This document shows positions 54,699 to 58,604 of a DNA stretch of 64,000 nt, piece by piece. The position numbers and the translations under genes were made by a program. Under the pieces are notes generated by a model that did no database searches, was not told the DNA's origin, and worked only from the letters and a program-made list of their open reading frames with translations. The DNA lies in assembly GCF_000226315.1 (NCBI RefSeq), contig NC_016026.1, positions 1,240,001-1,304,000 on the forward strand, given 5' to 3'. Within the stretch, counting starts at the first letter, position 1; each line of letters begins with the position of its first letter. The stretch is from Micavibrio aeruginosavorus ARL-13 (GTDB taxonomy: Bacteria > Pseudomonadota > Alphaproteobacteria > Micavibrionales > Micavibrionaceae).

Positions 54699-55682
54699 TT
54701 AGACCAGCATGGAAACAGGATTTTCGATGTAGCGTTTGAACACCTGCAGATATTCGGCGCCAACCGCCCCATCAACCGCGCGGTGATCCACCGACAAGGT
54801 TACGGACATGACGGTGCCCACTTCCAATTTGCCGTTCACGACAACCGGTTGTTGGATACCGGCCCCAACGGCCAGAATGCAGGCCTGCGGCGGGTTGATA
54901 ATGGCGGCAAAGTCCTTAATGCCGTACATGCCGAGGTTGGAGATAGAGAAGGTCCCACCCTGAAATTCAATCGGCTTCAACTTGCCATCACGGGCGCGGC
55001 CCGCCAGATCTTTCACTTCCTCGGAAATCTCACGCAGACCTTTGGTCTCCGCCGCTTTCACGATCGGTGTGATCAGGCCGTTCGGCGTGGCCACAGCAAC
55101 GGAGATATCCGAGCTGTGATATTGCAAGATCGCATCATCGGTCCAGGACACGTTCGCCGCCGGATAGGCTTTGAGCGCCATGGCCGATGCCTTGATCACG
55201 AAATCGTTGACCGACAATTTGAATGCGCCTTTGGCTTCGGCGTTCAAACGTTCACGTGCGGCCAACAAATCATCAATACGGCAATCAACGGTCAGATAGA
55301 AATGCGGAACCGTTTGTTTGGATTCCAACAAACGGGATGCAACCACCTTGCGGATATTGTTGTTCGGCAGTTCCGTGTATTCCATGCCCAGCAAATCGGC
55401 CAATTGCTTGGCGTTCGGGCCAGACGATGCCAGGCGCGGTGCGCCAGCAGAGGCAGCGGGTTTTGCGCCACCTTTGAAATTCAGCACGTCGTCCTTCACG
55501 ATACGGCCATGCGGGCCCGTGCCGGATACGACGGACAGATCAATGCCCTTCTCACCCGCCAAACGGCGTGCGAGGGGAGAAGCGAATATGCGGGAGCCTT
55601 TGTTCAACAAAGATCCCTCACCCTGCCCCCTCCCGGAGGGAGAGGGTTCTGTTTTTGCGGGCGCAGCGGACACCGGGGCCAT
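54699..55682 (-). CDS. Dihydrolipoamide acetyltransferase (E2), binding and catalytic part
   Basis: This frame encodes the C-terminal part of pyruvate dehydrogenase E2: the peripheral-subunit-binding domain ([20 protein letters not shown] with [11 protein letters not shown]) and the acyltransferase domain with the active-site [14 protein letters not shown]. It starts at ATG 55682, seven bases after GGGGA, which a palindromic repeat supplies as a ribosome site. The frame upstream that holds the lipoyl domain is in a different register. The 327-residue product lacks a lipoyl domain, but E1beta (56011-57423) carries one that could serve it. Confidence 0.85.
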
Positions 55683-55993
55683 ATCGTCCCCTCTCCCTGC
55701 GGGAGAGGGTTGGGGTGAGGGGGCGCAGATTTAAGATCCGCAGCGCTTTCGCCATCTTCCAGCAACATGGCAATCGGCGTATTCACGGCCACGCCTTCGG
55801 TGCCATCAGCCACCAGAATTTTACCCAGCGTCCCTTCGTCCACGGCTTCAACTTCCATCGTTGCCTTGTCCGTTTCGATCTCGGCGATCACATCACCGGC
55901 CTTGATCTTGTCGCCTTCCTTCTTGGTCCATTTGGCCAATTTCCCTTCAGTCATGGTCGGGGACAAGGCAGGCATTGTGATTTGAATGGGCAT
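55604..55993 (-). CDS. E2 lipoyl domain fragment (frame-split from the catalytic part)
   Basis: The 129-residue product begins with a complete lipoyl domain ([20 protein letters not shown]; lipoylation lysine in [12 protein letters not shown]) and then runs through a palindromic repeat ([20 protein letters not shown]), ending out of frame. It would normally be the N-terminus of the E2 gene; the rest continues in the overlapping frame at 54699-55682. It may be expressed as a free lipoyl domain, or the split may reflect an assembly error. The domain is nearly the same as that on E1beta. Confidence 0.75.
55615..55721. repeat. Inverted pair of palindromic repeats inside the E2 linker
   Basis: Units at 55615-55646 and 55688-55720 are inverted copies of a roughly 33-bp motif (CCCTCACCC...CTCCCGGAGGGAGAGGG and CCCTCTCCCTGCGGGAGAGGG...). 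Each is a hairpin by itself, and the pair brackets about 41 bases of the Ala/Pro-rich E2 linker. Proteobacterial repeats of this kind are familiar for their [11 protein letters not shown] translation. This pair is unrelated in sequence to the REP-like copies elsewhere in the window. Confidence 0.85.
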
Positions 55994-56010: not shown

Positions 56011-57423
56011 TTAGCGGTAGCAGACCTGTTTCGCCACATGGACAATCTCATCCACCTGCGGCAGGGCCAGGGCTTCGAGGTTTGCGGCGTATGGCAGCGG
56101 AACGTCCGCGGCGCAAACACGGCGCACCGGTGCATCCAGATAATCAAACGCATGTTCGTTGACCAAAGCGGCAATTTCCGAACCGATACCAGCGAACGGC
56201 CAGCTTTCTTCAACACTGACAATGCGGTTGGTTTTCTTCACCGATTCAATAATCGTCCAACGGTCCAGCGGGCGGATGGTGCGCAGGTTGATGACCTCGG
56301 CGCTGATGCCTTGCTCGGCCAGTTTCTCGGCGGCCTGCAGGGCTTTGCCCACCATGATGGAATAGGCAACCAGCGTGACATCAGTGCCCTCGCGTTCAAT
56401 TTTCGCGCGCCCCATCGGGATCACGAAATCCTCATCCGTCGGCACGTCAAAGCTCTGGCCGTACATGATTTCGTTTTCCAGGATCACAACCGGGTTCGGA
56501 TCGCGGATGGCGGCCTTCATCAGGCCTTTCGCATCGGCGGCGGACCACGGCGCAACAACTTTCAGACCCGGGATATGGCCATACCAGCTGGCGTAATCCT
56601 GGCTGTGCTGGGCACCAACGCGTGCGGCGGCGCCGTTGGGTCCGCGGAACACAATCGGGCAACCCAATTGACCACCGGCCATATACAATGTTTTGGCGGC
56701 GGAGTTGATGATGTGGTCAATCGCCTGCATGGCGAAGTTCATGGTCATAAATTCGACAATCGGCTTCAGACCGCTGAATGCGGCACCGGTTGCGATACCG
56801 GCAAAGCCGTATTCGGTGATCGGCGTATCAATGACGCGTTTTGCACCAAATTCATCCAGCAGACCTTGGGATACTTTGTACGCGCCGTTATATTCGGCAA
56901 CTTCTTCACCCATCAGGAATACGGTGTCATCGCGGCGCATTTCTTCGGCCATGGCGTTACGCAAGGCTTCGCGCACGGTCATGGTTTGCGTTTCGGTGAA
57001 GGCGGCCTCGTCAAACATCGGCGGCTCGATAATCACGCCCTGTGCATACAGGATGTCGCGGTTATCAACATGCGCGCCAGCGGGCTGGGATGCGGACCCA
57101 CCCGATACCACAGGCGCAGCAGCCGGAGCGGCCGCGGCCTTCGGCGCCGGGCCGGACGATACGGCACCAACGGATGTTTCGCCATCTTCCAGCAAAACGG
57201 CAATCGGCGTATTGACCGCGACACCTTCGGTGCCTTCGGCAATCAACAATTTGCCCAATTTACCTTCATCCACGGCTTCGACTTCCATGGTGGCTTTATC
57301 GGTTTCAATCTCGGCGATCACATCACCGGGCTTGACCATATCGCCTTCTTTTTTCGTCCACTTGGCCAGTTTCCCTTCGGTCATCGTCGGGGACAGCGCG
57401 GGCATCAAAACTTCAATCGACAT
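56011..57423 (-). CDS. pdhB: Pyruvate dehydrogenase E1 beta with N-terminal lipoyl domain
   Basis: The N-terminus ([20 protein letters not shown], lysine in [12 protein letters not shown]) is a lipoyl domain, followed by an Ala/Pro-rich linker (about residues 86-115) and a transketolase-type E1beta domain with [13 protein letters not shown] and [20 protein letters not shown]. The fused lipoyl domain is typical of alphaproteobacterial PDH. It has 470 residues. It lies between pdhA and the split E2 gene on the same strand. Confidence 0.95.
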
Positions 57424-57450: not shown

Positions 57451-58479
57451 TTAGTCTTTGACTTCAACCAGAACATCGGTCCACAGCTCGGCAACATCCG
57501 GCTCCGGTGACTCTTGCGCGAATTGTGCGGCTTCGTTCACGATGTCTTTGATTTCTTTTTCAATCGGCTTCAGATCGTCTTCGGTGACGCCTTCGACTTC
57601 CAGAAGCTTGCGGATACGTTCAATCGGATCGCTTTCCGTTTTGAATTTCTCTACCTCTTCCTTCGAACGGTATTTGCCCGGGTCGGACATAGAGTGACCG
57701 CGATAACGATACGTCATCATTTCCAGCAAATATGGGCCATTGCCGGAACGAATGTGGTCCAACGCCTGACGCGCGGCGGCCTGAACGGCCAGAACATCCA
57801 TACCATCAACCTGTTCGCCCGGGATGCCATAGGCCTCACCACGGCGATACAAATCACCGGCGGCATGGCGGGAAATGCTGGTCCCCATGCCGTATTTGTT
57901 GTTTTCAATGATGTACAGAACCGGCAATTTCCACAGGGCGGCCATGTTCATGGCTTCATAAAACTGCCCTTGGTTGGATGAACCATCGCCCATATAGGCC
58001 ACAGCCACGCCGTTATCACCCTTGTATTTGTGCGCGAAGGCCAAACCAGTGCCCAGCGAAGAGCTGGCACCAACGATACCGTGCCCACCAAAGAAGTTCG
58101 CTTCTTTGCTGAACATGTGCATCGAACCGCCCTTGCCGCGGGAATACCCACCGCGACGGCCCGTCAATTCCGCCATGACCCCTTTCGGGTCCATGTTACA
58201 GGCCAGCATGTGGCCGTGATCGCGGTATGCGGTGATAACCGTATCCTGCGGCTCCTGCATCGACTGGATACCGGTAACGACCGCTTCTTGTCCAATATAC
58301 AGGTGGCAGAAACCACCGATCAGTCCCATGCCATAGAGCTGGCCGGATTTTTCTTCAAAACGGCGGATCAGCAACATATCGCGGAAGAGCTTTTTCATCT
58401 CTTCGACGGTCGGCTTTGCCTGGCTGTTCGATACGGATTTCAACTTTGAATCTTTGCTTGTCTTGGCGGATGTGGCCAC
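57451..58479 (-). CDS. pdhA: Pyruvate dehydrogenase E1 alpha
   Basis: This thiamine-diphosphate enzyme decarboxylates pyruvate in the PDH complex. The TPP motif GDGSSNQGQFYEAMNMAALW with the terminal NN (IENNKYGMGT) is present, as are FEEKSGQLYGMGLIGGFCH and YRYRGHSMSDPGKYRS, the region of regulatory serines in other species. The start at GTG 58479 has a GGAGG ribosome site; the longer frame to 58593 is less likely. This gives 342 residues, normal for the family. Confidence 0.95.
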   Translation of the reverse strand: MATSAKTSKDSKLKSVSNSQAKPTVEEMKKLFRDMLLIRRFEEKSGQLYGMGLIGGFCHLYIGQEAVVTGIQSMQEPQDTVITAYRDHGHMLACNMDPKGVMAELTGRRGGYSRGKGGSMHMFSKEANFFGGHGIVGASSSLGTGLAFAHKYKGDNGVAVAYMGDGSSNQGQFYEAMNMAALWKLPVLYIIENNKYGMGTSISRHAAGDLYRRGEAYGIPGEQVDGMDVLAVQAAARQALDHIRSGNGPYLLEMMTYRYRGHSMSDPGKYRSKEEVEKFKTESDPIERIRKLLEVEGVTEDDLKPIEKEIKDIVNEAAQFAQESPEPDVAELWTDVLVEVKD

Positions 58480-58604
58480 GAAAAGCCTCCTGCAGAAAAC
58501 GTTGGAAATGTGCGATTTTTCGCCCCGCACAACTACACCATTTCCCGGCAGGTTTCCACCCAAAACAAGATTGGGAAACCCGAAATGGTGCAATGCAGTA
58601 ATTT

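What the first reader, a model, noticed from the sequence alone, without database searches (positions are those of the whole stretch)
54699..55993. Pyruvate dehydrogenase E2 split in two by inverted palindromic repeats in its linker
Seen: the lipoyl domain (55604-55993) and the binding/catalytic domains (54699-55682) are in different frames, with two inverted repeat units at the break. The repeat provides GGGGA seven bases before the ATG of the catalytic half. Known: E1beta here has its own lipoyl domain. Inference: the enzyme may work as a split E2, with E1beta supplying the swinging arm and a free lipoyl protein made besides. This would be repeat insertion remodelling a central enzyme.
Basis: partly seen in the sequence, partly recalled or inferred. 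Interest (0 to 1): 0.75.

Follow-up and report, generated by a model that had tools for sequence, protein, structure and literature searches.

The report
Repeat-invaded pyruvate dehydrogenase E2 linker
A central metabolic enzyme gene of a predatory bacterium carries two palindromic repeats in its flexible linker and is frame-broken there in the published genome, perhaps only by a sequencing error, but relatives show that this part of the enzyme can be lost altogether, probably because a partner subunit carries a spare swinging arm.

Summary
In the published Micavibrio aeruginosavorus ARL-13 sequence the pyruvate dehydrogenase E2 gene is in two frames, parting at a pair of inverted palindromic repeats in the lipoyl-to-E3-binding linker. 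The repeats belong to a genome-wide family (37 matches). Two of the four other genus members searched carry such repeats in E2 linkers in frame; EPB has an intact gene without them. Nothing shows that the repeats as such split the enzyme. The genome is a 454 assembly (PMC3189940), and the break lies in a GC-rich hairpin with C5 and G4 runs, so an assembly indel is my first choice (0.55). Against that, it is the only break meeting my criterion in ARL-13 among 813 conserved ORFs. Both halves are under strong purifying selection.

Six genomes of the family and one of another family have complete E2 genes with no lipoyl domain. In these the only pyruvate-dehydrogenase lipoyl domain found is on E1beta. 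An E2 working with E1beta's arm is therefore plausible. Whether ARL-13 does this needs one PCR across 55600-55760.

The parts
57451..58593 (-). pyruvate dehydrogenase E1 alpha
   Evidence: PF00676 333 bits; TIGR03182 489.2 bits, above its cut-off of 393.85
56011..57423 (-). pyruvate dehydrogenase E1 beta with an N-terminal lipoyl domain (residues 4-77)
   Evidence: NF008854 799.6 bits, cut-off 454; PF00364 62.7 bits
55604..55993 (-). lipoyl-domain half of E2, which leaves the E2 reading frame after about codon 87
   Evidence: PF00364 74.7 bits; first 85 residues identical to EPB; substitutions against EPB by codon position 0, 1, 21 in 91 codons
54699..55682 (-). E3-binding and catalytic half of E2 (frame open upstream to 55730)
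   Evidence: PF02817 and PF00198; DHRAVDG motif present (its catalytic meaning is recalled); 343-aa open frame
55688..55723 (-). palindromic repeat unit 1, including C5 (55723-55719) and G4 (55691-55688); by inference the frame break lies between 55730 and the ATG at 55682
   Evidence: exact match to the family core CCCTCACCCCNACCCTCTCCC, one of 37 matches at up to 3 mismatches, reversed-pattern control 1; left-edge C runs of 31 copies
55648..55687 (-). spacer between the repeats; in the catalytic frame it reads as Ala/Pro linker, with the internal ATG at 55682
   Evidence: codon-by-codon view against EPB
55615..55646 (-). palindromic repeat unit 2, inverted relative to unit 1
   Evidence: inverted-repeat pair I1; nearly identical unit in frame in G003
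55610..55740 (-). stretch in which the two units fold into one hairpin, with the internal ATG in its apical part
   Evidence: -73.6 kcal/mol, shuffles -52.06 +/- 4.3, z -5.01

Best explanation
This is an ordinary pyruvate dehydrogenase E2 gene whose flexible linker has received a doublet of a genome-wide palindromic (REP-like) repeat. Such linkers tolerate in-frame palindromic insertions, as relatives show. The single frame break in the published sequence is most likely an indel in the 454 assembly inside the GC-rich hairpin formed by the doublet, so the cell most likely makes one E2 chain. Shown: the repeats, their in-frame state in relatives, the sequencing method as published, and the constraint on both halves. 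Inferred: that the break is not in the organism.
For: G003 carries both units, and G001 one unit in each of two linkers, in a single E2 frame. EPB and G004 are unbroken, as are 49 of the 54 pyruvate-type E2 rows by frame length (408-515 aa). The genome was sequenced by paired-end 454 and assembled with Newbler, with PCR and Sanger for gaps (PMC3189940, passages). The break interval holds C5 and G4 runs inside a -73.6 kcal/mol hairpin. Substitutions against EPB fall mainly on third codon positions in both halves: 0,1,21 and 20,4,89. The first 85 residues of the lipoyl half are identical to EPB, and the catalytic half shows no clear acceleration (5 ARL-13-unique, 1 EPB-unique, 6 unpolarised changes). 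No canonical -1 slippery heptamer was found.
Against: In 248,801 codons of 813 conserved ORFs this is the only break in ARL-13 that meets the coding-on-both-sides criterion, so the assembly does not look rich in such errors. C5 is a common left edge of the repeat (9 of 31 copies, this one included) and so is not visibly miscounted. Lack of the E2 lipoyl domain is found in relatives, so a real split need not be lethal.
Confidence: 0.55

Rival explanations
1. The break is real and the enzyme works as a split E2. An E3-binding/catalytic protein started at 55682 forms the core, E1beta's lipoyl domain carries the acetyl group, and a free lipoyl protein is made as well.
For: Only break meeting the criterion in ARL-13 among 813 conserved ORFs. 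No other pyruvate-type E2 found. E1beta lipoyl domain. Seven genomes have a lipoyl-less E2 near a lipoyl-bearing E1beta.
Against: The G run before the internal start is mostly paired in the hairpin. The lipoyl ORF ends 78 bases downstream of that ATG, so simple termination-reinitiation coupling is unlikely. No relaxation in the lipoyl half. E1beta linker of 46 residues as in EPB, against 52-59 in six lipoyl-less relatives, though 24 others span 39-59.
Confidence: 0.36
2. The break is real but is bridged by ribosomal slippage at a run in the overlap, stimulated by the hairpin, giving some full-length E2.
For: Both frames are open together over about 125 bases; N NNN tetramers at 55715, 55691 and 55655, the last just before repeat unit 2.
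Against: No X XXY YYZ heptamer in the lipoyl ORF. The spacer reads as linker only in the catalytic frame, so slippage would have to lie in or before repeat 1 to give a normal linker.
Confidence: 0.05
3. The break is real and recent, and E2 is a decaying pseudogene.
For: Frame break in one strain only of the genus.
Against: DHRAVDG motif and E3-binding domain intact, no other pyruvate-type E2 found, strong constraint; the genome paper calls the genome almost completely devoid of pseudogenes (PMC3189940, passages).
Confidence: 0.04

Closest known systems
Pyruvate dehydrogenase with a lipoyl domain on both E1beta and E2 (NCBIfam PRK11892 with TIGR01349; Zymomonas mobilis type, recalled)
   Same: Operon order and domains of E1alpha, E1beta and E2
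   Different: ARL-13 E2 is in two frames; seven other genomes lack the E2 lipoyl domain entirely
OdhA of Corynebacterium glutamicum, which depends on the lipoyl groups of the pyruvate dehydrogenase E2 (PMC8146983 and PMC7568260, passages seen)
   Same: An acyltransferase domain served by a lipoyl domain on another subunit
   Different: There the arm is on another E2; here it would be on E1beta of the same complex
In-frame intragenic REP and Rickettsia palindromic elements (PMC3733652, passages seen)
   Same: Short palindromic repeats, also as dimers, inside genes in frame
   Different: No PF01797 (RAYT-type) transposase found in this genome; whether the ends carry GTAG or CGTC tags was not tested

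Membership tests
Pyruvate dehydrogenase E2 (TIGR01349) | Catalytic acyltransferase and E3-binding domains of pyruvate type | tested here: met
   TIGR01349 is the best family by far for the catalytic half, 444.2 bits, just under the whole-protein cut-off of 445 (the lipoyl part is missing from it); next family 226 bits
Pyruvate dehydrogenase E2 (TIGR01349) | Lipoyl domain on the same chain | tested here: inconclusive
   Present upstream in another frame; depends on whether the break is real
E1beta with lipoyl domain (PRK11892) | Lipoyl domain plus transketolase domains | tested here: met
   799.6 bits, cut-off 454, profile positions 1-464 of 464
REP/REPIN elements mobilised by RAYT | Short GC-rich palindromes in many copies, some as inverted doublets | tested here: met
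   37 matches, control 1; pairs seen
REP/REPIN elements mobilised by RAYT | RAYT transposase in the genome | tested here: not met
   PF01797: 0 of 1 genomes, while 5 of 14 control genomes ring
REP/REPIN elements mobilised by RAYT | GTAG or CGTC tag at one end | not tested
   Feature taken from PMC3733652 (title and passages)
Programmed -1 ribosomal frameshift | X XXY YYZ slippery heptamer in the zero frame before a structure | tested here: not met
   None in the lipoyl ORF

The most novel reading that the evidence does not exclude
In this family the swinging arm of pyruvate dehydrogenase has moved from E2 to E1beta. Six family genomes and, separately, one of another alphaproteobacterial family have lost the E2 lipoyl domain altogether, and ARL-13 is a further, recent case in which a repeat doublet has cut E2 into a free lipoyl protein and an arm-less core.
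Probability: 0.33. Interest if true: 0.72.

Novelty: new variant of a known kind. Interest (0 to 1): 0.5.

Why it matters
Textbook 2-oxoacid dehydrogenase complexes carry the swinging arm on E2. Natural complexes whose only lipoyl domain is on E1beta would show that the arm can sit on a peripheral subunit, and would suggest why alphaproteobacterial E1beta keeps one. The ARL-13 locus itself is a caution: a striking gene split in a hairpin of a 454 genome needs one PCR before it is believed.

Tried and rejected
First frameshift screens: too noisy, because stop-to-stop ORFs include non-coding ends, and they missed the E2 sense ORF because of the E1beta lipoyl paralogue and overlapping HSPs. One search found the cause and one search is the corrected screen. 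Its 27 raw candidates for ARL-13 (11 + 16) were sorted by the codon-position criterion alone; the 25 that failed it were not looked into one by one. Strict palindrome pattern: one site, which one search shows to be a member of the same family; its fixed loop length missed E2's own units.

Programmed frameshifting: no canonical heptamer. RAYT mobilisation: no transposase found. Accelerated evolution of the catalytic half: hinted at by tree branch lengths (0.046 versus 0.015) but not clear (5 versus 1 polarised changes, 6 unpolarised). Other apparently short E2s were set aside: G173 and four of the 80 named loci run into contig ends, G081, G084 and G106 have the domain in frame and end at contig ends, G057 is at a contig end, G140 starts 80 bases from a contig start and was not fetched, and L200 has an undetermined residue. 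Paper searches listed nothing that I recognised, from titles and abstract starts, as a lipoyl-less pyruvate dehydrogenase E2; the held library is open-licence only.

Full report
WHERE. The window is 1240001-1304000 of a single 2,481,983-base contig. That length is the one published for Micavibrio aeruginosavorus ARL-13 (PMC3189940, passages seen). G002 has 2,458,610 bases, which I recall as strain EPB; I call it EPB below.

OBSERVATION. The genes lie on the minus strand: E1alpha 57451-58593, E1beta 56011-57423 with its own lipoyl domain, then E2 in two frames, the lipoyl half at 55604-55993 and the E3-binding/catalytic half at 54699-55682. Both frames are open together over about 125 bases, because a TAA closes the catalytic frame upstream at 55731-55733. 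In the overlap lie two inverted palindromic units.

THE REPEATS. The core CCCTCACCCCNACCCTCTCCC matches 37 places in the genome at up to three mismatches, against 1 for the reversed pattern. Some copies are in inverted pairs. No Y1/RAYT transposase was found (PF01797, 0 of 1 genomes). The E2 pair folds as RNA into one hairpin of -73.6 kcal/mol, z -5.01, 0 of 200 shuffles as stable; three of the four G before the internal ATG are paired in it. A separate 121-base stretch that holds unit 1 and only the edge of unit 2 gives an unpaired probability of 0.00 for three of these G and 0.44 for the last.

RELATIVES. Of 58 genomes searched, 57 have some match; 54 have a pyruvate-type row at E 1.5e-98 or better, and of these 54 frames 49 have 408-515 residues. 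The other five are ARL-13 (343), G025 (307), G018 (308), G013 (322) and G057 (282, contig end). Within the genus, EPB (91% identical) and G004 show no unit. G003 has both units in frame in the same linker, with the reading PSPxGRG...[11 protein letters not shown] as in ARL-13's catalytic frame. G001 has one unit in each of two linkers, in frame. In one search, 29 of 37 loci gave an E2 ORF; two weak matches in other genomes (L017, L127) were also listed there. So the repeats by themselves need not break the gene. The stop at 55731-55733 and the linker-like reading of the spacer (comparison with EPB and G003) put the break between 55730 and 55682, an interval that holds C5 and G4 runs; this placing is an inference.

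REAL OR ERROR. The genome was made by paired-end 454 with Newbler, with PCR and Sanger for gaps. To see how often this assembly breaks frames, I compared 800 kb of ARL-13 with 800 kb of EPB. Among 813 conserved coding-like EPB ORFs (410 + 403; 248,801 codons) there were 27 raw candidate breaks in ARL-13. Two met the criterion of coding-type substitutions on both sides: E2 and an antisense ORF over the same place. In the reverse direction, 27 raw candidates in 809 ORFs (418 + 391) gave 3 marked for EPB. So ARL-13 does not look riddled with indels, yet one residual indel in a GC-rich hairpin of a 454 genome would be unremarkable (general knowledge). C5 is a usual left edge of the repeat (9 of 31 copies, this one included; C4 13, C3 6, others 3), so the run is not visibly miscounted. 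Selection does not decide either: the first 85 residues of the lipoyl half are identical to EPB despite 21 third-position changes in 91 codons, and the catalytic half has 5 ARL-13-unique, 1 EPB-unique and 6 unpolarised replacements. A recent break and an error look alike.

IS THERE ANOTHER E2? The genome has three PF00198 hits: SucB (629 bits, above cut-off), this E2, and a divergent protein with lipoyl and catalytic domains but no E3-binding match, next to a fused E1alpha-beta and an acyl-homoserine-lactone synthase-like gene.

A NATURAL PRECEDENT. In the family survey (104 genomes, 94 with a match at 1e-80, 95 match rows), six E2 genes have frames of only 290-322 residues: G013, G121, G122 and G123 (all four searched genomes of one genus), G025 and G018. 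Of the other 89 rows, one is ARL-13, three (359, 360, 397) are contig-end genes with the domain, and 85 are 408-490 residues long; I did not check the lipoyl domain in each of the 85. The six begin 8-10 residues before the Pfam E3-binding match and have a lipoyl-bearing E1beta near by: directly upstream in the four of one genus, with one small ORF between in G018, and about 3 kb off in G025. Pfam finds only E3-binding and catalytic domains in each. PF00364 searches of these whole genomes, of 90-99% listed completeness, find the E1beta domain and hits whose frame lengths fit SucB, AccB and a carboxylase (labels inferred from length), plus a few weak hits, but no other pyruvate dehydrogenase lipoyl domain. 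A domain on a missing contig cannot be excluded for the 90-92% genomes. G213, of another family of the class, has the same arrangement. In the class survey 225 of 290 genomes had a match, and not all rows were printed. A tree of 30 E2 catalytic parts puts the six family members on one side of a branch with weak support (58/86); four loci were dropped by the motif filter, and many surveyed genomes were not in it. The E1beta linker is somewhat longer in the six (52-59, median 55) than in 24 others (39-59, median 49.5; Mann-Whitney p 0.003, relatedness not corrected; 5 of 35 loci not measurable). ARL-13 and EPB both have 46.

MECHANISM. If ARL-13 is truly split, the E3-binding/catalytic protein would form the core and E1beta's arm would carry the acetyl group, as I infer for the lipoyl-less relatives; no activity was or could be tested. 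Known in principle: OdhA of Corynebacterium depends on lipoyl groups of another subunit (PMC8146983, PMC7568260, passages seen). Points against in ARL-13 are the buried G run before the start, a lipoyl ORF that ends 78 bases beyond that start, no slippery heptamer, and an E1beta linker as long as EPB's.

VERDICT. Observation confirmed. Remodelling by repeats is not shown. The lasting result is the lipoyl-less E2 group, which I did not recognise in any paper listed and 68 of an open-licence library.

Noticed in passing
L035 4345-5262; L036 8656-9594; L037 8038-8958; L125 817-1698; L126 5617-6549; L127 2489-3358; L145 4922-5818: Pyruvate dehydrogenase E2 genes without any lipoyl domain, with a lipoyl domain on E1beta near by, in seven genomes of the class.
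   Followed up: yes
L044 7959-11937 (G000:C1 about 1987958-1991936): An acyl-homoserine-lactone synthase-like gene beside a fused E1alpha-beta (677 aa) and a divergent E2-like protein with lipoyl and catalytic but no E3-binding match; a lipoyl hit in a 342-aa frame suggests that EPB has the E2-like protein too. Perhaps it supplies an unusual acyl-CoA for a signal.
   Followed up: partly
L147 3751-5039 (G377): Another E2 with lipoyl and catalytic parts in different frames at the linker; not checked for repeats; could be an assembly indel.
   Followed up: no
L024, L026, L031, L032 (E2 linkers); L246 (E1beta linker): Other repeat-like peptides (for example PSAVEGS, GLPRRASAPRND, CNLQPVT, PSFPLKGEGRGEG) in linkers of relatives, suggesting by eye that these linkers often take up in-frame repeats.
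   Followed up: no
ARL-13 genome, 37 places: A palindromic repeat family with inverted doublets but no PF01797 transposase found; the genome paper reports very little repetitive DNA, counting repeats of at least 50 bp and 97% identity.
   Followed up: partly
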